Shown: positions 3,347 to 47,400 of the stretch, piece by piece
How positions within the stretch are numbered: the first letter of the stretch is position 1
How the letters are laid out: every line of letters begins with the position of its first letter
Assembly (NCBI RefSeq): GCF_029215995.1
Contig: NZ_JAEMVB010000004.1
Span: 1-64,000 of the forward strand
DNA length: 64,000 bases
Reading direction: 5' to 3'
Source of the DNA: Sulfurimonas sp. SAG-AH-194-L11
GTDB taxonomy: Bacteria > Campylobacterota > Campylobacteria > Campylobacterales > Sulfurimonadaceae
The notes under the pieces: model-generated
Databases searched by the model: none
What the model saw: only the letters and a program-made list of their open reading frames with translations
What the model was told of the DNA's origin: nothing
Program-made: the position numbers and the translations under genes

Positions 3347-4510
3347 ATGAAAGTATGTATCATTATAGACGACTCTTTACCAAGTAGCATAAAAGTAGCT
3401 GCAAAAATGATACATGAGTTAGCTTGTGAACTTATTCTTCAAGGTCATGAAGTGAGTGTTATTACTCCTGATACTAATGTTTCTTTTGTAAGTGTCGAAA
3501 AACTAGATGGGGTAACTATATATAGGTTTCACTCTGGTGAGATTAAAAATGTAGGAAAAGTAAAAAGAGCTTTAAATGAAACATTGCTCTCTTGGAATGC
3601 ATGGAAAAATACTAAAGACATACTGAAAGAAAATCCTCATGATTTGATAATCTACTACTCTCCCACTATATTTTTTGGTCCGTTTGTTTATATGTTGAAA
3701 AGAGTATGGAATGTGAAAAGCTATCTGATACTGAGAGATTTTTTCCCTCAATGGACTATTGATAACAAAATACTTAAAAAACACTCTCCTATAACATACT
3801 ATTTTAAATTTTTTGAAAGAATAAACTATTCTGTTGCCGATACAATAGGTGTAATGTCGGAGAAAAATTTAGAATGGTTTAGACGATATTATAAAACTGA
3901 TAAGCCTTTAGAAGTGCTATATAATTGGGCTGACTTACAAATGTTTGAGAAAGAAAGTGATAGATATAGAAAAAAGTTAGGATTAAAAAACAAGGTTGTG
4001 TTTTTTTACGGTGGTAATCTTGGGCATGCTCAAGATATGATGAATATAGTTAGATTAGCTGTAAATATGAAATATGAAAAGCAGGCTCATTTTGTGTTGG
4101 TTGGAGCAGGTGATGAGTATGAGCTTATAGAAGATAATATACAAAGTCAAAATATTACCTTATTACCTTCAGTAAATCAAGAAGAATTTAAACAGATGTT
4201 ATCAGAGTTTGATATAGGTTTATTTACTCTAAATAAAAACCACATTACACATAATTTTCCAGGAAAGCTTTTAGGCTACATGGTACAAGAAATGCCAATA
4301 CTTGGAAGTGTCAATCCTGATAATGATTTAAAAAATGTTTTAGAAAAGTATGATGCAGGGTTAGTTACTGTAAATGGAGAAGATCAACTATTTTATGAAA
4401 ACGCTAAAAAACTTTTAGATGAAAAATTTAGACTACAGATGGGTAAAAATGCTAAGAATCTTTTGATAGAAAAGTTTTCTGTTGGGAGTGCTGTTGTACA
4501 GATACTTTAG
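3347..4510 (+). CDS. Glycosyltransferase family 4 (WbuB-like, probable FucNAc transferase)
   Basis: A 387-aa GT-B protein. It has an N-terminal acceptor lobe starting KVCIIIDDSLPSS, then a donor lobe with NKVVFFYGGNLGHAQDM (around residue 215-235) and the late motif FPGKLLGYMVQEMPILGSV, typical of GT4 enzymes. FnlABC are commonly followed by a WbuB-type enzyme that transfers FucNAc to a lipid-linked sugar, so transfer of L-FucNAc is the likely role; the acceptor cannot be read. It starts one base after fnlC and closes that operon. A 138-base gap with a TATAAT-rich stretch separates it from the next gene. Confidence 0.75.
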   Translation: MKVCIIIDDSLPSSIKVAAKMIHELACELILQGHEVSVITPDTNVSFVSVEKLDGVTIYRFHSGEIKNVGKVKRALNETLLSWNAWKNTKDILKENPHDLIIYYSPTIFFGPFVYMLKRVWNVKSYLILRDFFPQWTIDNKILKKHSPITYYFKFFERINYSVADTIGVMSEKNLEWFRRYYKTDKPLEVLYNWADLQMFEKESDRYRKKLGLKNKVVFFYGGNLGHAQDMMNIVRLAVNMKYEKQAHFVLVGAGDEYELIEDNIQSQNITLLPSVNQEEFKQMLSEFDIGLFTLNKNHITHNFPGKLLGYMVQEMPILGSVNPDNDLKNVLEKYDAGLVTVNGEDQLFYENAKKLLDEKFRLQMGKNAKNLLIEKFSVGSAVVQIL

Positions 4511-4648
4511 GAATGAAGAGATATTATAGTTGTCATAGAAAGAGGTATTTAAATTTTGTAGGTAAGTATCAGAATCAGTTTATTAAGCCAAATCTTTAAA
4601 TAATTATTATATAATATATTTAATCATATAATAATTTTTAGGATAGAA

Positions 4649-5578
4649 ATGCTGATACTTGGTAATAAATATACATTTACAGATTTAGAACTGAAACGAC
4701 TTACTAAAAAGTTTAGCTCTATTAAACATATAAGCTATAAAGATGAAGACCCTCAAGTAGTTATAGCAGATATAGAGGATATCTTTAGTAAGAACTCTTA
4801 TCCTGTAGTGGTTTTAAATACAAAAGCTACACTTGATGATTCTATCATTCGGTATCTTACCAATTTACAATTTAAAAATTCAAATATTACTATTATTGCT
4901 ATTGAGCATTTTTTAGAGAAGTATCTTCATAAATGTTATATCCCTGAGGACAATAATGATTTTCATTGTCTTGATAATATTAAAGGGTACACATTTTTTC
5001 AAACATTACAGAAAAAAGGTGTTGACTATCTCTCTGTTAGTGTATTGTTGATGATGTTTCCATTTATAAAGTATGTGGTTAAGAAAAAGATAGATAAGCA
5101 GTCTCCTGGAAGTTTATACTTTCATCAGGCTCGTGTTGGCTGTAACAATAAAGACTTCGAGTGTATAAAATTTCGTAGTATGCATGAACATGATAGTGAA
5201 AATGATGTACGAACTGCTACTAAAGAGGATGATAGAAAATTTCCTTGGGGTGAGAGTATGCGCAGAATGCGTATAGATGAGTTACCGCAGATTTTTAATA
5301 TTTTAAAGGGCGAAGTTCATCTCATAGGTCCACGTGCAGAGTGGAACAAGCTCACTCAGGAGTATGAAAAAGAGATACCATACTATAACCAACGCCATGT
5401 AGTAGCTCCTGGCATAACAGGGTGGGCACAGGTTATGTTTGTAGAAGGTAGAAGCAAGGATGACACACGCCAAAAGCTTATGTATGATCTGTACTACATA
5501 AAAAACTGGAGTTTACTTTTAGAGCTTAAGATTATCTATAAGACTATAGTTGTCGTTCTGAGCAAAAGAGGGATATAA
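4649..5578 (+). CDS. Polyprenyl-phosphate sugar-1-phosphate transferase lacking the usual four-helix N-terminus
   Basis: Catalyses transfer of a sugar-1-phosphate from a UDP-sugar to undecaprenyl phosphate, the first membrane step of glycan assembly. The last 190 residues are a bacterial sugar transferase domain: a hydrophobic re-entrant segment (about 125-148), SPGSLYFHQARVG, KFRSMH, RMRIDELPQIFNILKG, LIGPRAEW and PGITGWAQV. The first 115 residues look like a soluble Rossmann-type region, as in the middle of WcaJ/WbaP proteins, but the four N-terminal transmembrane helices are absent. An AGGAT ribosome site precedes the ATG. The sugar (GlcNAc, FucNAc or other) cannot be read. Confidence 0.8.
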   Translation: MLILGNKYTFTDLELKRLTKKFSSIKHISYKDEDPQVVIADIEDIFSKNSYPVVVLNTKATLDDSIIRYLTNLQFKNSNITIIAIEHFLEKYLHKCYIPEDNNDFHCLDNIKGYTFFQTLQKKGVDYLSVSVLLMMFPFIKYVVKKKIDKQSPGSLYFHQARVGCNNKDFECIKFRSMHEHDSENDVRTATKEDDRKFPWGESMRRMRIDELPQIFNILKGEVHLIGPRAEWNKLTQEYEKEIPYYNQRHVVAPGITGWAQVMFVEGRSKDDTRQKLMYDLYYIKNWSLLLELKIIYKTIVVVLSKRGI

Positions 5579-33327: not shown

Positions 33328-34038
33328 TTATACGTCAAATCTAACGATTAACTCAGAACCGCTGATGTCTACAGAATCTGCCATTTTGAATGTTTGATTA
33401 ATAACATCCATATTAGCAGTAAGTAGTTGCTCTTTTTTCTTAAACTTTTTCTCTATTGCAGAGTCAAGTGTAGCAGTACCACCAGATGCAACAAATGAGT
33501 TTCCAAGGAATCTCTCTCTAACTGCAGCTTCAATATGCTTTGTAGTTACAAGTTTAGTAAGACCAAGAAGCATACCCATCATTGCCATATTAGTTGCAAG
33601 TTCAGTACCAGCAATTTTTTTAGCTAGTTTAGTTGCATCAAACTGAACAACAGTAGTATTTAAGTCATTAAGTACTTTTTCATCTTCTTCAGTAAGAACA
33701 TCATAGTCAGTATTAATGATAATTAAAGAATTTGGCTTTAGACCTGTGTAAAATGGCATAGTGTATGACTTACCATGTGTTACAACTTGTGAGTGGTAAA
33801 TCAGAATAATATCTGGATAAACAACTTCACCAACTTCATAAATAGGGTCCGAAGAAGCTCTAACATAAGCTTCAACAGGTGCCATTCTCTTTTCAGAACC
33901 AAAAAATGGTACTAGAGATGCATATTTACCTGCATTATCCATTGTTGCTCCAAGGATGTGAGCAGTTGTAACAACACCCTGACCACCTAGACCAGAGATT
34001 CTAATATTATATCTTTCTCTTTTTTTATTTTCAGCCAT
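33328..34038 (-). CDS. forG: 2-oxoacid:ferredoxin oxidoreductase gamma subunit (For-type operon)
   Basis: A 236-aa gamma domain of the PFOR superfamily. The N-terminus ISGLGGQGVVTTAHILG, FGSEKRMAPVEAYVRAS and the C-terminal GTELATNMAMMGMLLG are family signatures for the subunit that contacts the CoA-binding region. It ends in a short unique tail. It follows the beta subunit by one base and precedes forE by 12. It pairs with the gamma subunit of the second operon at 46678, with which it shares many motifs. Confidence 0.9.
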   Translation of the reverse strand: MAENKKRERYNIRISGLGGQGVVTTAHILGATMDNAGKYASLVPFFGSEKRMAPVEAYVRASSDPIYEVGEVVYPDIILIYHSQVVTHGKSYTMPFYTGLKPNSLIIINTDYDVLTEEDEKVLNDLNTTVVQFDATKLAKKIAGTELATNMAMMGMLLGLTKLVTTKHIEAAVRERFLGNSFVASGGTATLDSAIEKKFKKKEQLLTANMDVINQTFKMADSVDISGSELIVRFDV

Positions 34039-34039
34039 A

Positions 34040-34948
34040 TTAGTTTACCGCCTCTGCTTTACTTGCTTTTCTTGCTTTTCTTGCCGCTTTTTCTTCGCCT
34101 TCAACACGCTCGATTACTATTTTAGCTTCGTCAGTCATATACTCATCAAACTTGAATCTACCTCTACCTAATTCGATTGCATCAGCAAAAACGTCTTCTG
34201 TAGGAATAGAATACTCAATGTTACAAGAAGTGTAAGCATGAATAAAAGTTGGACCAACTTCACGTGCAACGAAGATTGCTCTTCTAATAACTTTTGCAGC
34301 TTGTTTGATGTTAGTTGGTGACATTCTTACAATATAAACACAACCAGCAGCTTTAGCTAACTCAGTCGCAGGCATTTTCTCGAAGTCTTTACCCATTGGA
34401 GCCATCTTAAGAACAGCACCCTTTGGAGACATACCAGATGATTGACCACCAGTGTTTCCATATACTTCATTGTCAAGCATGATTGTAGTAAATCTTTCAC
34501 CACGAATCCATGAGTGCATAGTCATTGAGAAACCGATATCCATAGTACCACCGTCACCGGCAATAGTAATAACATCTTTTTGCTTGTCAGGGAAACGTAA
34601 TCTAAATGCACGAGTAAGACCAGAAGCCATTGCATTTTGATCACCATAGTTACCATAGATAAATGGAACAGCAGCTTGAGAAATCGCAAGACGACCACAA
34701 CCAGCAGTACCTAATGTTACAGTCTCTTCCGGACATGGAAGTGAAGCAAAAATTAGTCTGATGTAGTAAGCCATCCAACAACCAGAACACATAGGGTGTT
34801 CTTCCATTAACTCTTTGAATTGACCCATGTTACCTGGACCAGCTTCTTCTTGTGTTTTTCCGAATGGACCGAAGTCAACTAACTCAACATAATCTTTTGG
34901 CAGGTATCTCTTAAATCTCTCTGCAGGAGTTACATATTTTAAACTCAT
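34040..34948 (-). CDS. forB: 2-oxoacid:ferredoxin oxidoreductase beta subunit, TPP-binding (For-type operon)
   Basis: A 302-aa TPP-binding subunit. HPMCSGCWMAYYIR (cluster or substrate-side cysteines), AGDGGTMDIGFSM (the GDG...N-type TPP/Mg motif, continuing to LDNEVYGNTGGQSSG) and TSCNIEYSIP are the beta-chain motifs. With alpha, gamma, D and E it should catalyse reversible oxidative decarboxylation of a 2-oxoacid, here presumably in the CO2-fixing direction. A lysine/alanine-rich tail (about 275-302) is unlike the second operon's beta chain. Substrate (2-oxoglutarate vs pyruvate) is inferred only from operon order. Confidence 0.9.
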   Translation of the reverse strand: MSLKYVTPAERFKRYLPKDYVELVDFGPFGKTQEEAGPGNMGQFKELMEEHPMCSGCWMAYYIRLIFASLPCPEETVTLGTAGCGRLAISQAAVPFIYGNYGDQNAMASGLTRAFRLRFPDKQKDVITIAGDGGTMDIGFSMTMHSWIRGERFTTIMLDNEVYGNTGGQSSGMSPKGAVLKMAPMGKDFEKMPATELAKAAGCVYIVRMSPTNIKQAAKVIRRAIFVAREVGPTFIHAYTSCNIEYSIPTEDVFADAIELGRGRFKFDEYMTDEAKIVIERVEGEEKAARKARKASKAEAVN

Positions 34949-34960
34949 AATATTTCCTTC

Positions 34961-36145
34961 TTATAATTTCATTTTGTGCTCAATACCGAGCGCTTCATAT
35001 ATTTCAAACATAATAAGTTCAACTGGAAGTGTCATACCACCAAAAACTCTTGGACCTTCATGAACAATACCACCATTAGGAATAGCAGCTTTTACTTCTG
35101 TACATAACCAACCAATGATATTGTGTTCAGGAACAATAACTGTTTTAGCAGTTTTTAATGCTTCACGAATTTCATCTCTTGGGAAAGGTCTAATTGCTCT
35201 TACTTTAACAAAACCAACACTTAGCCCATCTTCTTGAGCATATCTATGTGCCTCTCTAGCTTGAGCAGCTGCACAACCAGAAGCAAGAATCATAACATCA
35301 GAACCTGGATTTTGAACTTCAATTGGTCCACCAAGATACTCATAGATGTATTTCATTGCACGAGAGTTAGAATCCCAAATCTCTTGTTGCCATACTGAGT
35401 GAATTAAATAACTCATAAAGTTTGACTTTTGAACAGGAGCATCACGTTGGATTCTCGCTGGAGGAGTTTCATTGTCCATTGCTGGAACTGGTGAAGCTAC
35501 TGGATCAAATTCTTTGTACACTAAATCTTCTGACATCATGTTTACATAACCCTTAGCATGTGTTACGAAGAAACCTTCTGTAGCAACTGCAACTGGAATA
35601 TAAACGTCAACTTTCTCAGCAATAGCAAATGCTGCAAGTGTAAAGTCAAATGTATCTTGCTGATTTTCAGCATGTAACATAACTGCACCACAATGCATCA
35701 TATAAGCCATTTCTATATTATCAGGTTGAATTGATAATGGAGCATTAACAACACGAGTAAGAATTCCAAGTACTGCTGGAACTCTATGCCCTGGCCATGA
35801 AACAATCGCTTCTAAACCACGAAGTAAACCTGGTCCTGAAGTTGCTGTAAATAGACGAATACCAGCTCTTGATGCACCAGCAATTGCTGACATTGTACCA
35901 AGCTCTTCTTCTGCTCTATAATACTCTTTAATATGCCCTTGAGCAAATACATCACCAACTAGGTGCATTACTTCTGATTGTGGAGTAATAGGATACGCAA
36001 TTGCCATATCAACATTAGCTCTTTTAACAGCTTCTGCCATTGCTTGAGCACCTGTGATAAAGTGTTTCTCTCTTGGAGCCTCATGTAGAAGATGGTTCAT
36101 CTCTACTTGTTTTTTATTTAATACTGGTCTTGTGATTGCACTCAT
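34961..36145 (-). CDS. forA: 2-oxoacid:ferredoxin oxidoreductase alpha subunit (For-type operon)
   Basis: A 394-aa alpha chain with the pyrimidine-binding domain (AYPITPQSEVMHLVGD, ATSGPGLLRGLEAI with the glutamate and glycines of the PFOR N-domain) and the domain II end (VRAIRPFPRDEIREAL). It begins HEAPREKHFITGAQAM, closely like the alpha chain at 44608, so the two are paralogues. It follows forD by 12 bases. The order D-A-B-G-E, as I recall from the Hydrogenobacter 2-oxoglutarate enzyme, favours succinyl-CoA carboxylation, but a second pyruvate enzyme is possible. Confidence 0.9.
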   Translation of the reverse strand: MSAITRPVLNKKQVEMNHLLHEAPREKHFITGAQAMAEAVKRANVDMAIAYPITPQSEVMHLVGDVFAQGHIKEYYRAEEELGTMSAIAGASRAGIRLFTATSGPGLLRGLEAIVSWPGHRVPAVLGILTRVVNAPLSIQPDNIEMAYMMHCGAVMLHAENQQDTFDFTLAAFAIAEKVDVYIPVAVATEGFFVTHAKGYVNMMSEDLVYKEFDPVASPVPAMDNETPPARIQRDAPVQKSNFMSYLIHSVWQQEIWDSNSRAMKYIYEYLGGPIEVQNPGSDVMILASGCAAAQAREAHRYAQEDGLSVGFVKVRAIRPFPRDEIREALKTAKTVIVPEHNIIGWLCTEVKAAIPNGGIVHEGPRVFGGMTLPVELIMFEIYEALGIEHKMKL

Positions 36146-36157
36146 TTAATTTCTCCT

Positions 36158-36871
36158 TTATTCCGCATCAGTGATATGCTCACCCTTCTTTGTCATGATG
36201 AGACTTCTGTACTCACCATAATCAGCAGGTGATAATGTACTGTTGTCCTCTTTTGGTAAAGATGGATTTTCAGGTGGTAAAGTAGTTTCCCACTTAATGC
36301 CTAGTTTGTTTCTTTCTTCAATGATTATTTCTTTGAATTTAGTAATATCAGATGCATGTAAATCTCTAATAGATGCCATAGCTTCTTCATGTCCCATATA
36401 AGCACATAATGCAATAGTGTAACAACTAGTACCTGCACGAATCATTCTAAGTGTAAGGTTTGCATAGTGACAGTGAACTCCAACAAAGACACAAGCTTTG
36501 ATTTTGTTATCAAGGATTGTTAAGTTAGGGTGATTTGGGTTAATCTCAGCTTTAACATCAATCTTTGGATATTTAGGTCTGTAATCCGGCATTGGTATAA
36601 TTTTACAATTAGGAATTTCAGATGCAAGATCTAAAATAGCTGCAGATTTTTCTGCAACATCTTCTTTCCAATCCCACAGAACTTGAGGTCCAGGGAAAAT
36701 TGTTGGATTATCATTTGTAAGTAATGCAATTGCTGCATCTCTCATCGCCTCTTCTGGTGTTACAGTTTCTCCATAGAGTAAAGCTGAACCTTCTGGTGCA
36801 AGCTCAACTCCCATAGAAGGCGCGGACTGAGGCATATAACCTGCAGGTCCTACTGATATTTTTTTCGACAT
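36158..36871 (-). CDS. forD: D subunit of five-subunit 2-oxoacid oxidoreductase, long form (ForD-like)
   Basis: A 237-aa protein without iron-sulfur cysteine motifs. The core FPGPQVLWDW, IPMPDYRPKYPKIDVKAEINPNHPNL, VFVGVHCHYANLTLRMIRAG and MGHEEAMASIRDLH is shared with the shorter D subunit at 44023. I recall such proteins being named carbon monoxide dehydrogenase beta subunit family. It is longer than its paralogue, with extra sequence at both ends (about 25 residues N-terminal, 35 C-terminal). It opens the operon behind an AAGGAG site. Role inside the complex is not known to me. Confidence 0.8.
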   Translation of the reverse strand: MSKKISVGPAGYMPQSAPSMGVELAPEGSALLYGETVTPEEAMRDAAIALLTNDNPTIFPGPQVLWDWKEDVAEKSAAILDLASEIPNCKIIPMPDYRPKYPKIDVKAEINPNHPNLTILDNKIKACVFVGVHCHYANLTLRMIRAGTSCYTIALCAYMGHEEAMASIRDLHASDITKFKEIIIEERNKLGIKWETTLPPENPSLPKEDNSTLSPADYGEYRSLIMTKKGEHITDAE

Positions 36872-37549: not shown

Positions 37550-37867
37550 TTAGTTTCCACCAGCATCTTTTGGTGGTTTTTCGCCAGCATCAAAGCCGAT
37601 TACAACACCACTTCTACTAACAAGCTCACTTGATGTCTCAACATCATCATCATCGTCTTCAGTAGGTCTAACAGTACTATGAATAATAATCTTATCATTA
37701 TAGTCGACAGCTTGAAAGTAATGAGTCATACAAAAATTTTGATTCATTAAACACTCTAAAACACGTGCTTTATTAATCATATCTTCTCTTGTCTCAAATT
37801 TCATATTATTTTTTATGTCACTTTTTAAAAAACAAGCACATTCTTTTTCAATTTCTATTGTATACAT
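37550..37867 (-). CDS. Hypothetical 105-aa protein, last gene of the dab operon
   Basis: A small soluble protein starting MYTIEIEKECACFLKSD, with two early cysteines (C10, C12), more at about 38 and 46, an acidic run (EDDDDDVE, about residues 71-78) and a flexible Gly/Pro C-terminus. No family is recognised. It starts 27 bases after dabA with a good AAGGAAAG site, so it is likely expressed with the carbon pump. It could be a regulator or assembly factor of DabA, but that is only from position. Confidence 0.7.
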   Translation of the reverse strand: MYTIEIEKECACFLKSDIKNNMKFETREDMINKARVLECLMNQNFCMTHYFQAVDYNDKIIIHSTVRPTEDDDDDVETSSELVSRSGVVIGFDAGEKPPKDAGGN

Positions 37868-37894: not shown

Positions 37895-40768
37895 TTAAAA
37901 TTCTTTGATAATTTTAAAGTCACCATACTCATATGAGTAAACTTTTTTAGCTTTTTTATCAATTATTATTGGACGAATCCATTCATTCAGTATAAACTCT
38001 TTTGCTACTGAGTTCTCTACAGCTTTTCCTACGGTTTCTAAAGGTGCTTCCATATAGGTAAGAAGTCTTATTGGTTCATGGTAGGCCTCGCCTTCTAAAA
38101 GTACTGACTGTGTAGGAAGACCTATTTTTAGATCACTATAGTTACCATTAAAGACACCAATTTTCGAGACGACATTATGATAAACCTTTGAACCCGCACC
38201 ATAAATAGTATTATCTACAGTAGAAAAGTAGTGTTCAAGATTTATCCATTCACCTACCACTAGTGGTCCGTTAAAAATTCGTGTAAGTATATCAGAATTT
38301 TCATTATCTAGCTTATGGTCATATGAGTGTAAAAAAAGTCTATTTCCAAATGACATATGTTTTATGGACTCTCTTGGACCTGCAAATACACCCATATTTC
38401 CTGCTAATCCCCATTCTGGTCTTGTTTCTGACCAGTCCATAGACTTAATCATAATATCATTTTCATTATTAGTGTATGGTAATTGCTTAATTCTTTCACA
38501 ACGTGCAATAGAAGAAGCTTTTTTAAACTCTTTCATTACTATAGAAAATCTTTGTTTCTCTTTGTAGTTTAAAATATCTGTATCGTAAAACTCTATCTCA
38601 TCTGTTGATGTTATATGAAGTGTTGGCATAAATTTTACATCATCAGGGATAATGATACCTTTTTTTGCTATTTCTTCTCTTACATCTTGAGAGTTTCCTA
38701 TCATACAGAGTGCTCTGTTATTAGGAAGACTACTACTACCTCCACATGCACCACAGTCAAGTGCAGATTCAAAAGGATTGTTGTCTGAAACACTCATGTG
38801 TCCTGATAAAATCACAAACTCAGGAAAATTGTCTACTTGACCTATCATTGTTAAGTAGTTGTATAAATACTCTACTTTTTCTTCTAGTGTAAACCCAACT
38901 TTAGATAATTTTTGTTTTTGAAATTTATAATCATCGACTGAAATATTGTAGTTTTCTTTTAATTTAGTTAAGAGTTCAGAAGGTACTTCTACAGAAAGAT
39001 TTCCATCTAAAATTAGATGGTCTCTTATAGCTTGAATATCCTTTGTTGAATACTTTTTAGAACTATTACTTAGAAGTGCTTCACTTATAATGTGAATATG
39101 CAATTTATTAACATACATCTCTATCTCTTCATTAGAGAGTTTATCCATTGTGTAAGTAGTTTTAGGTTTTTTAGCTTTAAAGTTAGAAAAGAATTTATTT
39201 GTTTTTTGTGGTAAAAATGTTTTTCCAAAAAGATTTATACCAAATATCCAACCAATCGCTTCAACCATTATATAAGGAGTATAAGGATTGTTTTTTAGAT
39301 CACTAATAACTTTTTTAGTAGTTTTGTTAATGGTTTTTTTAGCTTTATACTCTTCATCAGACTCAACAGCTAATTCAAAAACTATATTTCCTGGTGTTAA
39401 AACTGCTGGACAAAGTATCTGTTCATGTGCTTTGTCAAACTCCACAAAAGCGATAGGGAAGCCTAAAAAACCTCCAGCACCATATGTTGTATAGTTTCCA
39501 CTACTCTCAATAGCCCGTCTCATAGTTTCTGATCTTACATCTAAACATAAGGTGGCAGATGCAAGTGCTCTTTCTTGTTGGGGTGCTTCGCCTAAGTCCA
39601 TTTCATTTATAAAAGATTGAATATAAGTATCTTCAAGTGACTTCATCCATATATATCCCTCTTCTTCTCTGAGTACTTCCATAATTTTGGCAAGTTCTAC
39701 AAGAGGTATATCACTGTTTTTTAGTATGTCACTTGAAAGATGAACCTGTTTAGCATCAAGATGAAGCTCTTCTTGTACATATCTTTCTAAAATATCCTCA
39801 TAGTTATCAGAATCTTCCATAGCATCTATGTATTTTCCAGGTAAGTTATATTTAAATTTAATCATTTTAAGTATAACAAATGCTGCATTTTCTAAAGAAT
39901 AATCATGCAAAAGATCAAAATTATTAATTTTTCTATGCTGTAAGTATGCTAATTCATAATAGAGTCTAATCGCCATATAATCCATAAGAGAAGAGGGATA
40001 CTTCTGCTGTGAATAATATTCAGGATCTTCAGAACGGTACTTAATAAAACCTGCCCAACCATGTAGTTTTAAAATATGTGTTAAAAGGTATCTCTCTTTA
40101 TTCTTTACATGAAGTTTTTCTAATGCTTCTTCTACAAAAGTTGTAGAGTCATATGCATACTCAAAGTCTTCGTAAAGTTTGAAAGTTTCGAACATTCCGA
40201 ACTCTCTATTTGGCATAGATATAGTGGTTTGCTCTTCATCTAAAAAACGTGAGATATACTCTATGATACTTTTTTCAATAACCTCTTTGTCATCACGATA
40301 AAAAAGAATATCATTAATCTCATAAAGTGTCATATGTTTTGTTATCTGTTTTAACCATCTTTCTTTATTATGGTACGAAAATTGATCATCAAGATATGCT
40401 ATTAAATCTTCGTCAACTTCATGATCCTTCGAATCGGCACAACTTCTAAGGTGATTCCATTGTGGGTTTACTTCTATAAGGCACTTCATCGCCAAATCGT
40501 AATACTCTTCAAGCCCATCAACTTCTAGAATTTTTTTAAGATTTTCTTCTAAAATGTCGTGAGATATTTTTCCTTCATTATAGAATTTTAAATAATAAGA
40601 TGGCTCCATATAAACCTTGCCACCATATATTTTTTTTGCTTTATTGACACCATCCCTAAAAGATAGATGTTCAAAACCTTTTAAAGGATTGTGGTGAATA
40701 AATGATCCAATAGGCCAGTAGTGTGGAATATTATTCTTAATTGCATCAAGTTTTTTCGCTATGCCCAT
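37895..40768 (-). CDS. dabA: DabA, beta-carbonic-anhydrase-like subunit of an inorganic carbon pump (DUF2309)
   Basis: A 957-aa DUF2309 protein. The predicted zinc-active site has C408 and D410 (LCLDVRSETMRRAIESSG), H657 (LSGHMSVSDN) and C672 (LDCGACGG), matching the Cys/Asp, His, Cys arrangement reported for DabA. In the known system DabA and the membrane protein DabB use cation flow to turn CO2 into bicarbonate directionally and build an internal carbon pool. The start overlaps the end of the membrane gene upstream by 10 bases. In this window it lies between two CO2-using 2-oxoacid synthases, so its carbon probably feeds the reverse TCA cycle. Confidence 0.93.
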   Translation of the reverse strand: MGIAKKLDAIKNNIPHYWPIGSFIHHNPLKGFEHLSFRDGVNKAKKIYGGKVYMEPSYYLKFYNEGKISHDILEENLKKILEVDGLEEYYDLAMKCLIEVNPQWNHLRSCADSKDHEVDEDLIAYLDDQFSYHNKERWLKQITKHMTLYEINDILFYRDDKEVIEKSIIEYISRFLDEEQTTISMPNREFGMFETFKLYEDFEYAYDSTTFVEEALEKLHVKNKERYLLTHILKLHGWAGFIKYRSEDPEYYSQQKYPSSLMDYMAIRLYYELAYLQHRKINNFDLLHDYSLENAAFVILKMIKFKYNLPGKYIDAMEDSDNYEDILERYVQEELHLDAKQVHLSSDILKNSDIPLVELAKIMEVLREEEGYIWMKSLEDTYIQSFINEMDLGEAPQQERALASATLCLDVRSETMRRAIESSGNYTTYGAGGFLGFPIAFVEFDKAHEQILCPAVLTPGNIVFELAVESDEEYKAKKTINKTTKKVISDLKNNPYTPYIMVEAIGWIFGINLFGKTFLPQKTNKFFSNFKAKKPKTTYTMDKLSNEEIEMYVNKLHIHIISEALLSNSSKKYSTKDIQAIRDHLILDGNLSVEVPSELLTKLKENYNISVDDYKFQKQKLSKVGFTLEEKVEYLYNYLTMIGQVDNFPEFVILSGHMSVSDNNPFESALDCGACGGSSSLPNNRALCMIGNSQDVREEIAKKGIIIPDDVKFMPTLHITSTDEIEFYDTDILNYKEKQRFSIVMKEFKKASSIARCERIKQLPYTNNENDIMIKSMDWSETRPEWGLAGNMGVFAGPRESIKHMSFGNRLFLHSYDHKLDNENSDILTRIFNGPLVVGEWINLEHYFSTVDNTIYGAGSKVYHNVVSKIGVFNGNYSDLKIGLPTQSVLLEGEAYHEPIRLLTYMEAPLETVGKAVENSVAKEFILNEWIRPIIIDKKAKKVYSYEYGDFKIIKEF

Positions 40769-41514
40769 GTTAGTATCTCCTTAACCCCATAAATACTTAA
40801 TAGCACGAGTGAAACTATTATGGTAAAATGAGTAATTTTTTCTTTAAAATTTAAATCAACATAATGTATGTTCGGATTTTTTTTCCCAAATATTGACTTC
40901 TCTAACACACGCATGGAAACTAGAAAATTTCCAGCATAAAGAGTAATAACTATAACTAGCCATAAAGCATTTGCTTCGCTATTAAAAATATGTGTTAAAA
41001 AAAACAGAGAGTTTGGTAGTGGTGGGTAGAGTCCTATAGTTATGAGATACACTGTGATATGGATTCCTATTAAGGGAGTCGCTAATGTAATTCCTCTAAC
41101 ATAAAGATAGTTTGCACTTCCATAATGTTTTTCATAGAAACTAGCGATAGCATAAATACCAAGAAGCGATACCAGTAGTGATAAACTATAGAATGCACCA
41201 TGTTCTTCAAAGAGGATGAAAAAAGGTGCATTCATAAAGATAAAATAATATCCTAGTTTATAAAAGTTTGTTGTTTGTGTTGCACGATATATAGAATATA
41301 AAGCAGTGAAAAATGAGACAAGAACAAAAGAAGTCATATACTCTCTATCAGTAAAGAAAGAGATAATTACTCCAGTTAGTAAAAGAAATCCACTCACAAT
41401 AAAGATAGATTTTGCACTAAAACTATCACTTTTTTCTAAAAGAATAAAATATGGTACACCACCAGAAAGGAGTAAAAATACAATATTTAAAAATACAATA
41501 TTATCAGTAATCAT
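40759..41514 (-). CDS. Membrane protein between dabB and dabA, antiporter-like (provisional DabX)
   Basis: A 251-aa hydrophobic protein with about eight helices. Its end, GLYPPLPNSLFFLTHIF followed by a long helix and LRxLEKSIFGKK, resembles the C-terminal part of NuoM/NuoN-type proton-pumping subunits, but the N-terminal antiporter core motifs are absent. It overlaps dabB by four bases (ATGA) and dabA by ten, so all three should be made in step. I do not recall a third gene in the described DabAB operons. A subunit that completes or tunes the cation channel is the best guess; a split-off piece of DabB is the main alternative. Confidence 0.75.
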   Translation of the reverse strand: MITDNIVFLNIVFLLLSGGVPYFILLEKSDSFSAKSIFIVSGFLLLTGVIISFFTDREYMTSFVLVSFFTALYSIYRATQTTNFYKLGYYFIFMNAPFFILFEEHGAFYSLSLLVSLLGIYAIASFYEKHYGSANYLYVRGITLATPLIGIHITVYLITIGLYPPLPNSLFFLTHIFNSEANALWLVIVITLYAGNFLVSMRVLEKSIFGKKNPNIHYVDLNFKEKITHFTIIVSLVLLSIYGVKEILTWA

Positions 41515-43118
41515 AGTTTTCCTTTTTTAGAACTATTAAATATTTCAAAATAGTATCCTTCTTTTACAAGTAGTTTATAAAATGACCATTTTGATTTAGT
41601 TGATTTTTCTTTATTTGCTGGTAGTGTGATAAAATGCTGTTTGTATATAAATAGCCAGCCTACAATCATTACAAGAGATAATACAAGTAATGCACTCACT
41701 AAAGTTACATTGAGTGTTGCAGCTTTATAAAAGAGTAGAGAGTCATGACCATAAAGGAAATGTTCAAGAGAAAGACCAATAAACTCATAGCTAAAGAGTA
41801 CTATAATAAAAGAACTTATTATTCCAAAGATTGCTTTGATTGAATCAAATTTAGATACCTTGAAAAAAGATAGAAAAAGCTGTGTTCCTGTAAGCCAAGC
41901 AAAGGCTAAAATAACGATTGCAGCATTAAATTCAAAAAACTCTGGTGCAAGTATCATTTTTATACCAATAAATACAACTACAGGTACAATTGTAAAAAGT
42001 GCTATAAGTTTAAATGTTTTGCTACTTTTATATTTTGTGTTCTCCTCTAGAAATGTCTTATGTGAAAGACGTTCTGGAATATTTGGATCTTTTCTTGCAT
42101 ACTTTATAATACTACCTGACTCTAAGAAGAGCGAAGCTTTGAAAATTCCATGAACTATGAGGTGATAGATTGCAAGACTAAAAGCACCTAAACCTATCTC
42201 CATAATCATGTAGCCCATTTGACCTACAGTTGAGTAACCAAGAGAGCGTTTAATGTCTGATACAACAAGCATAAGCATAGAAGCGAAAATTGCGGTAAAA
42301 AGACCAATAACAAAAGCGATATTTAAAACCATAGGTGTAAGTATAAGTAAATAAGCCATTTTATTAAGTAAGATTCCTCCAACATTTACAACACCTGCAT
42401 GCATTAAACCTGACACTGGAGTAGGGGCTTCGGATGTATAAGGTAGCCATATGTGAAAAGGAACAATAGCTGACTTCATCATAGCGGCTAATAGATAGAG
42501 TAAACCTACTGTGAGTACCATTGGGTCGGTAACTGGACTTTGCGACATTACTAACCATTTTTCTTTGAGCACTAATAAATCAAAACTTCCAAAAGTTTGG
42601 TATGTTAATATAACTGCAAGTAGAAAAACGAAGTCAGCACCTTTATGAATATACATAGTCCATCTTGCATTCTTTACGGCAGTTTTAGAACCTACATTAA
42701 AAGAAACAAGAAGATATAAACCAACACTCATAAGTTGCCATGCTAAAGCAAGTACAATAAGATTATTACTCATAACAAGTAAATAGATAGAAGCAAAAAT
42801 AAAGTTTAAAAGTATAAAAAATCTTCTATAACCTGCTTCATCCCACATATACTTTGTTGCATATTTTCGTATAACTAAACCAAGTATCGCTACGTATGGA
42901 ACAAGAATAGCTGAGAGTTCATTGTAAACAAGTAAACCATTGAATCCAACTATTTGTGCATCATTACTGATTACATAGTATGTACCATATAATGCAAGTA
43001 AGGCTATCATACTTGATAGAATTATGCTTACCTTTGGTATGAGCTCTTTTTTCCTGATAAAAAATAACAAAAATGCTATTAATATGGGTATACCCGGAAT
43101 GAGTAATATTATTTTTTC
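41511..43118 (-). CDS. dabB: DabB, NuoL/ND5-like membrane subunit of the inorganic carbon pump (GTG start)
   Basis: A membrane subunit of the proton_antipo_M family. PLNAR-like core: ALAWQLMSVGLYLLVSF, KGADFVFLLA, AMMKSAIVPFHIWLPYTSEAPTPVSGLMHAGVVNVGG and SDIKRSLGYSTVGQMGYM, with the conserved Lys and the charged helix-break residues. I choose GTG at 43118 because AGGAG lies 5-6 bases upstream and the protein then starts in the first helix; an ATG 45 bases earlier has no ribosome site. The 535-residue length suits DabB. It should carry the cation flow that powers DabA. Confidence 0.9.
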   Translation of the reverse strand, partial: EKIILLIPGIPILIAFLLFFIRKKELIPKVSIILSSMIALLALYGTYYVISNDAQIVGFNGLLVYNELSAILVPYVAILGLVIRKYATKYMWDEAGYRRFFILLNFIFASIYLLVMSNNLIVLALAWQLMSVGLYLLVSFNVGSKTAVKNARWTMYIHKGADFVFLLAVILTYQTFGSFDLLVLKEKWLVMSQSPVTDPMVLTVGLLYLLAAMMKSAIVPFHIWLPYTSEAPTPVSGLMHAGVVNVGGILLNKMAYLLILTPMVLNIAFVIGLFTAIFASMLMLVVSDIKRSLGYSTVGQMGYMIMEIGLGAFSLAIYHLIVHGIFKASLFLESGSIIKYARKDPNIPERLSHKTFLEENTKYKSSKTFKLIALFTIVPVVVFIGIKMILAPEFFEFNAAIVILAFAWLTGTQLFLSFFKVSKFDSIKAIFGIISSFIIVLFSYEFIGLSLEHFLYGHDSLLFYKAATLNVTLVSALLVLSLVMIVGWLFIYKQHFITLPANKEKSTKSKWSFYKLLVKEGYYFEIFNSSKKGKL

Positions 43119-43659
43119 CACTGTAACTCCTGAAGTAATTAAATAGTATGAGACTTTTAGCATTTATATTTTTAAGCCAAGTTAAATATATAAATGAAAT
43201 GTTTATAGTAAAGCTGAAATTTAGTGATTATATTACTAAACTACATATATATACATAACGATAGACTAGTGTTAAAGGTGTAAAAAGTTACACTATTTGT
43301 TACATAAAGATAAATTCTTTATCATTTGTTACCCTTTGTAGCATAAGAAAGTTTGGCCCCAAAACATTATTTATGCTATTTTGTTAAATAGCCCATAAAG
43401 TCGCTATTACATTAGGTAAAATCTCCACGAAATAGATAAAATAAGATTTTAATCCATTAAATTAAAGAGAAATAAAAGGTTATTTGAGTAAAGTGCTATT
43501 CGAGAAACATAAATTATAGTTGATAGAAATGTATTGCAAATACTTTGAGATGTCAGTTTAAAGACATTTGATGGTTTTTTTAATGCTACATGCTATTGTT
43601 GGCTTTTAGTAAAATAGAAGCTGATACCAATGTTTAAGTCATCATTAAGGAGTAAATAA
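43119..43659. other. 541-bp divergent control region between dabB and porE, no gene seen
   Basis: No supported open frame. It must hold promoters for both the dab operon (minus) and the por operon (plus). It contains the GTGTAA-N4-TTACAC palindrome (43278-43293) and two ATTTGTTAC repeats (43295-43303 and 43324-43332). An AAGGAG ribosome site precedes porE. I saw no sigma-54 GG-N10-GC element. Confidence 0.55.
43278..43293. promoter_or_regulatory. Perfect palindrome GTGTAA-N4-TTACAC, candidate operator
   Basis: Six-base arms with a four-base spacer, the geometry of Crp/Fnr-family sites, though the sequence is not the Fnr consensus TTGAT-N4-ATCAA. It lies about 160 bases from the dabB start and 370 from porE. 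An ATTTGTTACAT copy begins two bases after it. Regulator unknown. Confidence 0.45.
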
Positions 43660-44022: not shown

Positions 44023-44592
44023 ATGGCAAATCAAGGCCCCGCGTATTATTCACCGTATCCTGCGGCAATATATGAAGGTGTAATTACACCACCAGAAGGA
44101 AAAGCACTTTTATTAGAAGAAGTGGTAGATGAAGAAATTGCAATGAGAGAAATCGCAAAGCAAATGTTAACTAAAGAGAATGCAACTATTTTCCCTGGAC
44201 CACAAGTATTATATGGTTATAACGATGAAGCAAAGAAAAAAGCGACTCTTATCAAAGAGATGGCTGAAGTTCTTAATGCTAATATGATTCCAATGTATGA
44301 CTATAGACCAAAGTATCCTAAAATTGATGCTGAAATTGAAATCAATCCGAATCACCCAAACTTAACAATTTGGCATAACAACATTAAAGCAGCAATTTTT
44401 ATTGGTGTTCACTGTCATTATGCTAATGTTGCATTAAAAATGGTTAGATGTGAAACAGATTGTTACACGATCGCTATTTGTGGTTTGTCAGGGCATGAAG
44501 ATGCTATGGCTACATTAAGAGATCAGCATTCTTCAGAGCTTGAGAAATTTATCAAGATAGCTAGAGAAGTAAAAGCAGAACTAAAATTATAA
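44023..44592 (+). CDS. porD: D subunit of five-subunit 2-oxoacid oxidoreductase, short form (PorD-like)
   Basis: A 189-aa paralogue of the D protein at 36158. Shared blocks are FPGPQVLYGY, IPMYDYRPKYPKIDAEIEINPNHPNL, IFIGVHCHYANVALKMVRC and GHEDAMATLRDQH. No cluster-binding cysteine motif is present although a CxxxC (VRCETDC) occurs. The protein ends in a short Lys/Glu helix where the other paralogue has a longer tail. AGGAGA lies before the ATG. It is 15 bases from porA. Its job in the complex is not known to me. Confidence 0.8.
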   Translation: MANQGPAYYSPYPAAIYEGVITPPEGKALLLEEVVDEEIAMREIAKQMLTKENATIFPGPQVLYGYNDEAKKKATLIKEMAEVLNANMIPMYDYRPKYPKIDAEIEINPNHPNLTIWHNNIKAAIFIGVHCHYANVALKMVRCETDCYTIAICGLSGHEDAMATLRDQHSSELEKFIKIAREVKAELKL

Positions 44593-44607
44593 GAAAAGGA
44601 GAACTAA

Positions 44608-45807
44608 ATGGCATCAATTAAAGATATGACAGATACACATAACTGGTCTGGACAGAAATTAGTTACAGCAGATCACATGCTTTTCGAAGCACCACGTGAA
44701 AAGCACTTCATGACTGGTTCTGAAGTTTTAAAAGAAGCGGTAAAAAGATGTACAGTTGATGCATCAGTATCTTATCCAATTACACCACAATCAGAAGCAG
44801 CACACCTTATCGGTGAGCTATGGGCTGAGGGTTATGTTGGTACATACTTCCGTGGGGAAAATGAGTTTGGTGTTATGTCAGAAGTTGCAGGTTGTGCAAT
44901 GGCAGGGGCTAGAACTATTACTACGACATCAGGTCCTGGTACACTTAGAGCAATGGAAAACTTTCCACAATGGTCTGGTACAAGAATTCCTTGTCAACTA
45001 ATCCTTATGGCTCGTGGTATTAACTCACCACTTACTATTCAACCAGATAACTTAGAAGTTTCTTTCATGTTAGAAACTGGTTGTATGATTTGGTATGCTG
45101 AAAATGTACAAGAGTTATTTGACATGAGTATCGCTGCATTTATCGTGGCAGAAAAGCCTGACGTTCATGTGCCTATTATTACTGTTGTTGATGGTTTCTT
45201 TGTTTCTCACACACGTGAGTCTGTAATGTTACCAGCTGATGATATCGCACTTTTACCTTATGAGCCATACAAATCTCCATTACCTCCGATTGATTCTGAA
45301 ACTCCTCCAGGACGTTTTCTAAGAGATCCATTTGTAATGAAGTCTAACTATATTTCTTATGCAACTCATGCTTCATGGCAGTGGGAAGTAAGATCTGCAG
45401 TTGAACGTTCACGTCCATATGCTAAGCATTTCCTTAAAGGTCTTGTTCATGTTACTGGAACGCCTGATGCTGAAATCGCATTTGTTACATGTGGTACTGC
45501 TTCTCATCAAGCAAAAGAAGCTGAAAGAGAATTAATGAAGCATGGTATTAAAACTAAGGTTATTAAACTTAGAACAATTAGACCATTTCCAAAAGAAGAA
45601 CTGCTTGCAGAACTTGAGGGTGTTAAACATATTTTCGTACCTGAGTTCAATGTTGTTGGTTGGTTAGAAAAAGAAGTAAAAACTGCTCTTCATAACAACC
45701 ACACTGCAAAAGTTATTGGTGGACCTAGAGTTGCTGGTGGAATGAGTCTACCTGCTGAAGCAATTCTTAAAGAAGTATTTGAACACATTAACGTAGAAGG
45801 AAAATAA
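44608..45807 (+). CDS. porA: 2-oxoacid:ferredoxin oxidoreductase alpha subunit (Por-type operon)
   Basis: A 399-aa alpha chain with SYPITPQSEAAHLIGEL, TTSGPGTLRAMENFPQW, PLTIQPDNLEVSFMLETG and KLRTIRPFPKEELLAEL, the PFOR domain I and II signatures. It closely resembles the alpha chain of the other operon (34961), so the two came from one duplication. In the anabolic direction a pyruvate synthase adds CO2 to acetyl-CoA with reduced ferredoxin; the porEDABG-like order supports this, but specificity cannot be proven from the residues. Confidence 0.9.
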   Translation: MASIKDMTDTHNWSGQKLVTADHMLFEAPREKHFMTGSEVLKEAVKRCTVDASVSYPITPQSEAAHLIGELWAEGYVGTYFRGENEFGVMSEVAGCAMAGARTITTTSGPGTLRAMENFPQWSGTRIPCQLILMARGINSPLTIQPDNLEVSFMLETGCMIWYAENVQELFDMSIAAFIVAEKPDVHVPIITVVDGFFVSHTRESVMLPADDIALLPYEPYKSPLPPIDSETPPGRFLRDPFVMKSNYISYATHASWQWEVRSAVERSRPYAKHFLKGLVHVTGTPDAEIAFVTCGTASHQAKEAERELMKHGIKTKVIKLRTIRPFPKEELLAELEGVKHIFVPEFNVVGWLEKEVKTALHNNHTAKVIGGPRVAGGMSLPAEAILKEVFEHINVEGK

Positions 45808-45808
45808 G

Positions 45809-46678
45809 ATGGCAATTGATATATATAAAATCAACCCTGAATTCCGTGACATTATGCCTAAAGAGATTATTGATCTTGAGGAAAATGCAACATGGGCTCA
45901 AAACCAAAAGAAACCACGTGGTATTAAAGAGATGCCAGACACTAAAGAGATTTTAGAAGAACACTCTTTATGTGCTGGTTGTCCAGAAGCTGCTGCACTT
46001 AGATATGTACTTGCTGCATTACCTAAGCCAGAAGAGACTATTATTGTTAACTCAACTGGTTGTACTTCTTTGATGTTCCCACACATCGCTCTTCATACTG
46101 TTCACTCACTTTTTGGTAATCAAAATGCTGTTGCAACTGGTATTAAAAGAGTTCTTGACTGGAGATTTCCAGATATAGAAAAAGATGTTGTTGTTTTAGC
46201 AGGAGACGGTGCTACTGTTGATATCGGTCTTGACTATACACTTCAGTCTTTCTTTAGACAAGAAAATATCACTACAATCTGTTTTGATAATGAAGTTTAT
46301 GCAAATACTGGTGGACAAGAATCAGGTGCAACTCCAAAAGGTCAAGTTTTCAAAATGGCGCCTACTGGTAAGAAGTTCGAAAAAGTAAAAATGTGGGAAC
46401 TTGCTACTACTGCTGGTTGTCACTATACTATGAACATGACTGCATCTGCTCCTAAAGCGGTTGCTAAAGCTGTTCGTGAAGCTATTTTAGTTGCAAGAGA
46501 AATCGGACCAACATTCCTTAACATTTACACTCCTTGTATCCTTGAGATTGGACTAAGTGCAAATGAAGGTCTTGGCGAAATGAAAGATCAAGATAAAGAT
46601 AGATTTGCATCTTACAAGTTTGTTTCTCCAGAAGCAGAAGAGTTCTTGAAAAAATGTAAAGCAGAAGGAAAGTTATAA
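45809..46678 (+). CDS. porB: 2-oxoacid:ferredoxin oxidoreductase beta subunit, TPP-binding (Por-type operon)
   Basis: A 289-aa beta chain: LCAGCPEAAALRYV, NSTGCTSLMF, LAGDGATVDIGLDY and FDNEVYANTGGQESGATPKG give the TPP/Mg site and Cys signatures. TGCTS is closer to pyruvate enzymes than the AGCGR of the other beta chain. The last 40 residues lack the Lys/Ala tail of that paralogue. It begins one base after porA and overlaps porG by one base, so all subunits are translated together. Confidence 0.9.
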   Translation: MAIDIYKINPEFRDIMPKEIIDLEENATWAQNQKKPRGIKEMPDTKEILEEHSLCAGCPEAAALRYVLAALPKPEETIIVNSTGCTSLMFPHIALHTVHSLFGNQNAVATGIKRVLDWRFPDIEKDVVVLAGDGATVDIGLDYTLQSFFRQENITTICFDNEVYANTGGQESGATPKGQVFKMAPTGKKFEKVKMWELATTAGCHYTMNMTASAPKAVAKAVREAILVAREIGPTFLNIYTPCILEIGLSANEGLGEMKDQDKDRFASYKFVSPEAEEFLKKCKAEGKL

Positions 46679-47400
46679 TGGCTAAAGATTCAATCAAAGT
46701 AAGACTTCCGGGTCTTGGTGGACAAGGTGCAGTTACAGCTGCACATATTGCTGCAACTGCAGCTGATACTGATGGTTACTTCGCTGTTTCTAATCCATTT
46801 TTTGGTGCAGAAAAGCGTATGGCTCCTTCAGAGTCTTATGCAAGAATAGGTACTGTGCCTATTTACGATAGAGGGGAAGTAATTTACCCAGATATCGTTA
46901 TGATTTTCCACCCACAAGTTATTACTATGGGTAAATCATATACTATGCCTTTTTATGCTGGTATCAAAGATAATGGTCTTGTTATCATTAACTCTGACAT
47001 CGATCTTTTAACTGATGTTGATAAGAAAATTCTTGCTGACAAAAATGTTAAAGTTCTTACTCATGACTTTACTAGATTTGCAATTGAGCAAGCTGGTACT
47101 GAGCTTGCTACTAATATGGCAATGCTTGGTGCATTATTTGGTGCTCTTGGTACAATCTCTAAGCCTGCTATTGAAGAGGGAATCAAAGATAGATTTCTTA
47201 AGAAATACACAGCTTCTGGTGGTACTGCTACACTCGATTCAGTTATTGAAAAGAAATTTAAGAAAAAGCAAGAGCTTATTGAGAAAAACCTCTTAACTGC
47301 ATCTGCTGCTTATGATTTAACTGCTGCATGGGCTAAAGAAGTTGGACTAGAACCAATTCTTGAGCCTTCAAAGCACAATAACGGTAACGTTAAGAAATAA
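46678..47400 (+). CDS. porG: 2-oxoacid:ferredoxin oxidoreductase gamma subunit (Por-type operon)
   Basis: A 240-aa gamma chain with LPGLGGQGAVTAAHIAAT, FFGAEKRMAPSESYARIG, QVITMGKSYTMPFYAGIKDN and GTELATNMAMLGALFG. It parallels the gamma protein at 33328 along nearly the whole length. Its start overlaps the porB stop. A strong hairpin follows, so it ends the operon. Confidence 0.9.
   Translation: MAKDSIKVRLPGLGGQGAVTAAHIAATAADTDGYFAVSNPFFGAEKRMAPSESYARIGTVPIYDRGEVIYPDIVMIFHPQVITMGKSYTMPFYAGIKDNGLVIINSDIDLLTDVDKKILADKNVKVLTHDFTRFAIEQAGTELATNMAMLGALFGALGTISKPAIEEGIKDRFLKKYTASGGTATLDSVIEKKFKKKQELIEKNLLTASAAYDLTAAWAKEVGLEPILEPSKHNNGNVKK

What the first reader, a model, noticed from the sequence alone, without database searches (positions are those of the whole stretch)
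40759..41514. Possible undescribed third subunit (DabX) of the Dab carbon pump
A 251-aa membrane protein overlaps dabB by 4 and dabA by 10 bases, so all three are made in step. It resembles only the C-terminal part of NuoM/N-type subunits. I do not recall it in described DabAB operons. It may extend the DabB cation channel or set ion specificity.
Basis: partly seen in the sequence, partly recalled or inferred. Interest (0 to 1): 0.7.

Follow-up and report, generated by a model that had tools for sequence, protein, structure and literature searches.

The report
Half-NuoM third subunit of DAB1
The small gene between dabB and dabA is real and belongs to a known but unexplained three-gene version of a bacterial CO2-capturing pump; its product looks like the back half of a complex I membrane subunit (NuoM) that has lost its proton-carrying residues, so it more likely braces the pump than carries ions.

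Summary
The ORF is real. It lies on the minus strand, codes for 251 aa, and overlaps dabB by 4 nt and dabA by 10 nt. [quoted passage not shown] What appears new is its nature. Relatives sit at this site in about 115 DAB1-type loci (Campylobacterota, Pseudomonadota, Aquificota). X-bearing DabA proteins form one clade (64 of 67 tips). Two-subunit DAB2 loci lack X. In about 20 Aquificota loci X is naturally fused to the C-terminus of DabB. A confident AlphaFold2 model (pLDDT 91, pTM 0.89) superposes over its whole length on the C-terminal half of NuoM/ND4 (Z 23). By sequence the family matches NuoM/MrpD, not NuoL, NuoN or DabB. Its membrane core has lost the Lys/His/Glu of the proton path, while DabB and DabA keep theirs. 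Most likely X is a permanent, proton-silent scaffold half-subunit that packs on DabB as NuoM's C-half packs on NuoL. Docking is inferred, not shown.

The parts
41511..43163 (-). dabB: NuoL-like 550-aa proton-conducting subunit
   Evidence: PF00361 E 2.4e-39 and PF00662; matches DabB2 chain 9rd0_B E 1.4e-39; K305, H334, H338, K342 conserved in both DAB1- and DAB2-type DabB
40759..41514 (-). X ('DabX'): 251-aa membrane protein, C-terminal half of a NuoM-type subunit, Hneap_0908-type third DAB1 subunit
   Evidence: ORF and overlaps; family alignment of 72; NuoM C-half by profile and by fold
37895..40768 (-). dabA: DUF2309/PF10070 957-aa zinc, beta-CA-like subunit, DAB1 type
   Evidence: PF10070 E 2.6e-200; zinc-site residues C408, D410, H657, C672 and finger Glu E503 conserved with DAB2-type DabA
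37550..37867 (-). small 105-aa ORF 27 nt downstream of dabA, unknown; takes the place of the P-II gene seen in other DAB1 operons
   Evidence: no Pfam hit; kept at the same place in L005; P-II at this place in N. hamburgensis, Halothiobacillus and the Aquificaceae locus

Best explanation
X is a permanent third subunit of the DAB1-type energy-coupled CO2-hydrating complex. It is a stand-alone C-terminal half (NuoM TM7-TM14 equivalent) of a NuoM/MrpD-type antiporter subunit. DabB (NuoL-like) and the membrane-inserted finger of DabA keep the proton path. X has lost the Lys/His/Glu of an antiporter half-channel and so does not conduct. It most likely packs sideways against DabB as the C-half of NuoM (ND4) packs against the N-half of NuoL (ND5) in complex I, capping and stabilising the N-terminal helix bundle of DabB. 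Making it from overlapping genes, or as a DabB-X fusion, fixes it at one copy per complex. SHOWN: gene structure, family, clade restriction, natural fusions, predicted half-NuoM fold, loss of charged core residues. INFERRED: physical membership in the complex, one-to-one copy number, the docking face, the scaffold role.
For: Overlapping dabB-X-dabA, conserved order and coupling. X in about 115 DAB1-type loci versus 3 without, two of which have no dabB upstream and one a truncated dabB. X-bearing DabA form one clade, 64 of 67 tips, support 0.95. About 20 natural DabB-X fusions in Aquificota. X distances track DabB and DabA, r 0.86-0.94 within groups. Profile matches NuoM/ND4/MrpD C-half, best E 8e-10, and the genome's own NuoM but not NuoL, NuoN or DabB. 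X model pLDDT 91.2, pTM 0.89, superposes on ND4 192-459 at Z 23.1, rmsd 3.5, 244 residues, and on E. coli NuoM 220-490. Model of a natural DabB-X fusion pTM 0.85 over 783 aa. Core helices of X lack charge; DabB and DabA path residues kept. Three-gene H. neapolitanus DAB1 complements CA-free E. coli (PMC7714395).
Against: No experiment on X alone was found. No coordinates or inter-domain error were available, so the docking face is unmapped; pTM 0.85 is only indirect support. A comparison of DabB with and without an X partner gave no clear contact patch. Two-subunit DAB2 works without X. X evolves faster than its partners (15% identity between phyla versus 33%). Thiothrix caldifontis lacks X, though its dabB is truncated too.
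Confidence: 0.6

Rival explanations
1. X extends the DabB channel or sets which ion is used: it supplies a second half-channel beside DabB.
For: It has the fold of the half of NuoM that holds one half-channel. The S. aureus relative MpsAB is reported to use sodium (PMC13144422), so ion use varies in this family.
Against: Core helices of X have 0-1 charged residues in 72 sequences over most positions, including the NuoM TM12 Glu position and TM7/TM8. DabB keeps its own path and DabA its finger Glu.
Confidence: 0.1
2. X is an assembly factor or regulator that helps DabB insert or pair with DabA but is not part of the finished complex.
For: Fast sequence drift, loss of catalytic residues, gene placed between the two partners so that it is made before dabA.
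Against: Natural in-frame fusion to DabB in about 20 loci keeps it attached for good.
Confidence: 0.15
3. X docks DAB1 to another membrane complex or makes DAB1 dimers, as antiporter-like subunits line up in complex I.
For: A NuoM C-half carries the natural contact face to a NuoL-type protein. Third-type dabA clusters hold full-length NuoM-like plus NuoL-like genes.
Against: No candidate partner found in the window; not tested.
Confidence: 0.1
4. X is a dispensable leftover, like mpsC of S. aureus, whose deletion has no effect.
For: mpsC is dispensable (PMC6689103); DAB2 and MpsAB work as two subunits.
Against: mpsC is reported as not kept with mpsAB outside staphylococci, whereas X is kept across three phyla and fused to DabB.
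Confidence: 0.05

Closest known systems
DAB1 of Halothiobacillus neapolitanus (Hneap_0909 DabB1, Hneap_0908, Hneap_0907 DabA1)
   Same: Same gene order dabB-X-dabA, long DabA, a small unnamed transmembrane protein between them (PMC13144422; PMC4633670). A congener (L074) has cbbO-dabB-X-dabA-PII-cbbQ, and its X belongs to this family.
   Different: The window genome has no RuBisCO hit, the operon is flanked by 2-oxoacid:ferredoxin oxidoreductase genes instead of carboxysome genes, and the P-II gene is replaced by an unknown small ORF.
DAB2 of H. neapolitanus (DabA2-DabB2, cryo-EM 9rd0/9rd8/9rd9)
   Same: Same DabB (NuoL-like) and DabA (zinc, membrane finger) core, with path residues kept.
   Different: No X gene; DabB is followed directly by DabA in DAB2-type loci.
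NuoM / ND4 / MrpD antiporter-like subunits
   Same: X superposes on their C-terminal half over its full length and matches by profile.
   Different: Half length, no N-half, proton-path residues lost.
MpsABC of Staphylococcus aureus
   Same: NuoL-like plus DUF2309 pair with a third gene in the operon.
   Different: mpsC lies downstream, is dispensable and restricted to staphylococci (PMC6689103); X lies between the two and is widespread.

Membership tests
DAB1-type three-subunit DAC (vectorial carbonic anhydrase) | DabA (PF10070) with zinc-site Cys/Asp/His/Cys | tested here: met
   PF10070 E 2.6e-200; C408, D410, H657, C672 aligned with DAB2-type DabA
DAB1-type three-subunit DAC (vectorial carbonic anhydrase) | NuoL-like DabB with the proton-path residues | tested here: met
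   PF00361/PF00662, 9rd0_B match, K305, H334, H338, K342
DAB1-type three-subunit DAC (vectorial carbonic anhydrase) | Small membrane protein X between dabB and dabA | tested here: met
DAB1-type three-subunit DAC (vectorial carbonic anhydrase) | DabA falls in the X-bearing clade | tested here: met
   Tree of 96 DabA, clade of 67, support 0.95
DAB1-type three-subunit DAC (vectorial carbonic anhydrase) | Rescues growth of a carbonic-anhydrase-free host in air | not testable with these tools
   Shown for the three-gene H. neapolitanus DAB1 (PMC7714395), not for this operon
Hneap_0908-like protein family | Homology to Hneap_0908 itself | not tested
   The Hneap_0908 sequence was not at hand; tied by gene order in a named Halothiobacillus congener (L074) whose X aligns in the same family and by 9 of 11 genomes of that genus carrying it
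NuoM / Proton_antipo_M (PF00361) | Curated family hit of the protein itself | tested here: not met
   P0001 no Pfam hit; only 7 of 72 family members touch PF00361
NuoM / Proton_antipo_M (PF00361) | Fold of an antiporter-like subunit | tested here: met
   C-terminal half only: ND4 192-459, Z 23.1
NuoM / Proton_antipo_M (PF00361) | Two inverted halves with conserved Lys/Lys/Glu proton path | tested here: not met
   One half; core without charge
MpsC | Third gene downstream of mpsB, dispensable, staphylococci only | tested here: not met
   X lies between dabB and dabA and occurs in three phyla (PMC6689103); sequences not compared

The most novel reading that the evidence does not exclude
X makes DAB1 a cut-down version of the NuoL-NuoM pair: a silent half-NuoM sits on the lateral proton-gating face of DabB (the side of the ion pairs that DAB2 modified) and tunes or insulates proton flow, giving DAB1 a different coupling from DAB2. 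Third-type dabA clusters with full-length NuoM partners would be the evolutionary stage from which X was whittled down.
Probability: 0.2. Interest if true: 0.75.

Novelty: new member of a known kind. Interest (0 to 1): 0.5.

Why it matters
DAB pumps feed carbon fixation in chemoautotrophs and are used to engineer CO2 uptake in E. coli. The cryo-EM mechanism (2026) is for the two-subunit DAB2 only. In the papers I could search, the extra protein of DAB1 is called hypothetical or unnamed and given no role. Recognising it as half a NuoM, a marker of the whole DAB1 clade and often fused to DabB, gives a testable structural role and a practical warning: constructs called DabA1/B1 that leave it out may be incomplete. 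One group found the three-gene construct works in CA-free E. coli (PMC7714395), and another found 'DabA1/B1' inactive (PMC12859837, which does not say whether the middle gene was included).

Tried and rejected
(1) X as a fragment missing from this DabB: rejected, DabB is full length and X does not align to DabB1 or DabB2 profiles. (2) X as a replacement for a missing NuoM of the host: rejected, the genome has NuoL, NuoM and NuoN elsewhere. (3) X on plasmids by single-sequence tblastn: nothing, because X diverges fast; the Nitrobacter hamburgensis plasmid copy was found through DabA instead. (4) Aligning DabB and X rows together with a fusion for folding: X rows fell on DabB; solved with 18 natural fusions. 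(5) Looking for the docking face by contrasting DabB with and without X: differences scattered, inconclusive. (6) Affinity of X to the NuoM-like proteins of third-type dabA clusters: scores 37-46 bits, no better than ordinary NuoM, so an origin there is not shown. (7) The original DAB paper (Desmarais 2019) is not held. (9) An automatic count first showed DAB1 loci 'without X' because open frames of dabA run upstream; corrected by domain positions and by eye.

Full report
OBSERVATION. The ORF at 40759-41514 is on the minus strand and encodes 251 aa from ATG. Read on that strand the order is dabB (41511-43163, 550 aa), X (251 aa), dabA (37895-40768, 957 aa), then a 105-aa ORF (37550-37867). dabB and X share ATGA (4 nt); X and dabA share 10 nt. 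dabB matches PF00361 and PF00662, dabA matches PF10070 with E 2.6e-200, and X alone has no significant Pfam or NCBIfam hit. A second genome of the genus carries the same trio with X 59% identical and again overlapping. dabA is rare in this phylum: 2 of 298 sampled genomes.

IT IS NOT UNDESCRIBED. The DAB2 cryo-EM paper (PMC13144422) states that H. [quoted passage not shown] coli. A named Halothiobacillus MAG (L074) has VWA protein (CbbO-like)-dabB-X-dabA-PII-CbbQ, and its X belongs to the same family as the window's. X is found in 9 of 11 genomes of that genus group.

HOW CONSTANT IT IS. A DabA profile scan of named genomes returned 80 loci, to which searches in Aquificota and Gammaproteobacteria were added. 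After removing loci fetched twice, X lies between (or fused to) dabB and dabA in about 115 DAB1-type loci: about 31 Campylobacterota, 56 mostly Pseudomonadota, 28 Aquificota. A few species may still be counted twice because the collections overlap. Three DAB1-type loci lack it: Thiothrix caldifontis L056, where dabB is also truncated, and L115 and L121, where no dabB precedes dabA. About 29 other dabA loci (DAB2 type and a third type) lack X; the one apparent hit, L156, is a full-length NuoM-like protein. In a tree of 96 DabA the X-bearing ones share one clade (64 of 67 tips, support 0.952), with all 29 others outside. Start and stop are usually overlapped by 4 nt or nearly so.

FUSIONS. An Aquificaceae MAG (L060) encodes DabB and X as one 783-aa protein. 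About 20 Aquificota loci do so and sit together in the DabA tree. In several of these the last helix of X is trimmed. Permanent attachment to DabB is the strongest sequence evidence that X works on DabB.

WHAT IT IS. A profile of 72 X proteins matches, among solved structures, the C-terminal 200-250 residues of NuoM/ND4/MrpD (8e9g_M 292-492, E 8.4e-10; 4he8_M, 7qru_D, 3rko_M and others) and neither NuoL nor DabB2; 26 of 72 members hit NDH_I_M in NCBIfam. Against this genome's own subunits the profile finds NuoM (hhalign E 6e-5) but not NuoL, NuoN, DabB1 or DabB2. AlphaFold2 gives pLDDT 91.2 and pTM 0.89 with a broken helix at PPLP (residues 147-178). The whole model superposes on bovine ND4 192-459 (Z 23.1, rmsd 3.5, 244 residues) and E. 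coli NuoM 220-490 (Z about 20) (Foldseek). From my knowledge of NuoM topology this is TM7 to TM14. X is thus half a NuoM.

IS IT A CHANNEL? Column counts over 72 sequences show 0-1 charged residues at almost every position of the core of the TM7-, TM8-, TM11- and TM12-like helices. The position aligned with the NuoM TM12 Glu (P0001 F172) is Phe/Met/Leu. Strongly kept features are prolines and glycines (P147, P164, P167, G141, G210) and basic residues at helix ends (R/K77, K/R28, K/R35). NuoM-like proteins of third-type clusters still show the K, H and E motifs in their sequences. By contrast DabB keeps K305, H334, H338, K342 in both DAB1 and DAB2 types (by alignment these should correspond to the DabB2 residues whose replacement impairs DAB2 in PMC13144422), and DabA keeps the finger Glu (E503). 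The proton path thus needs only DabB and DabA, as in DAB2.

HOW IT PROBABLY WORKS. In complex I the C-half of ND4/NuoM lies against the N-half of ND5/NuoL (established structural knowledge, not tested here). DabB is NuoL-like, so a half-NuoM is the very piece expected to fit its side. The model of the natural DabB-X fusion reaches pTM 0.85 over 783 residues; its DabB part aligns with NuoL (Z 32), and its weak stretch (about residues 332-355) lies toward the DabB C-half, the general region where the DabA finger enters in DAB2. A pTM this high suggests a defined arrangement of X on DabB, but no coordinates or error maps were available, so the contact face is not shown. A DabB contrast between types did not reveal it. 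I therefore propose a silent scaffold or lateral cap at 1:1, with about 0.6 confidence. That X belongs to the complex at all I hold at about 0.85, and the half-NuoM identity at about 0.95.

LITERATURE HINT. The three-gene DAB1 complements CA-free E. coli (PMC7714395), whereas 'DabA1/B1' cloned by others failed while DabA2/B2 worked (PMC12859837). The latter text does not say whether the middle gene was included, so this is a lead only. The third gene of the S. aureus system, mpsC, is dispensable and differently placed (PMC6689103).

RELATION TO OTHER KINDS. Some gammaproteobacterial clusters pair a third type of DabA with NuoL-like and full-length NuoM-like proteins, once as a 1045-aa NuoL-NuoM fusion (L166). 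They suggest a series DabB alone, DabB plus half NuoM, DabB plus whole NuoM, but X is no closer to those NuoM-like proteins than to ordinary NuoM.

VERDICT. Observation right, novelty claim wrong, channel idea disfavoured, third-subunit idea well supported and given a concrete structural identity. New member of a known kind, with a newly recognised nature of its third subunit.

Noticed in passing
window 33328-36871 (-) and 44023-47400 (+): Two paralogous 2-oxoacid:ferredoxin oxidoreductase gene sets (each with a PF02552 CO_dh-like subunit and POR domains) flank the dab operon on opposite strands; the genome has no RuBisCO hit, so DAB1 here probably serves a reductive TCA cycle.
   Followed up: partly
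window 37550-37867 (-): 105-aa ORF without Pfam hit takes the place of the P-II gene of other DAB1 operons; in L005 a second, related small ORF follows it (4376-4693 and 4859-5128).
   Followed up: partly
L164, L165, L166, L167: Third type of dabA cluster with NuoL-like plus full-length NuoM-like genes, two tandem dabA in Thiothrix (L164) and a 1045-aa NuoL-NuoM fusion beside dabA (L166).
   Followed up: partly
L056 4554-9045 (Thiothrix caldifontis): dabB ends at 444 aa and X is absent while dabA is intact: a deletion that removed the DabB C-terminus and X together, or an assembly fault.
   Followed up: partly
L006 2437-12949 (Nitrobacter hamburgensis X14 plasmid 1): Two tandem copies of dabB-X-dabA on one plasmid; the two X proteins carry the same accession (WP_011504819.1).
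   Followed up: no
L169-L175, L178, L182, L184, L185 (Aquificota): In many DabB-X fusions the protein ends soon after the loop that follows the TM13-like helix, so the TM14-like helix of X is lost.
   Followed up: no
L134 and the Campylobacterota clade: DabA of the Campylobacterota groups with an Aquificota sequence (L134, separate X), suggesting gene transfer between the two phyla.
   Followed up: no
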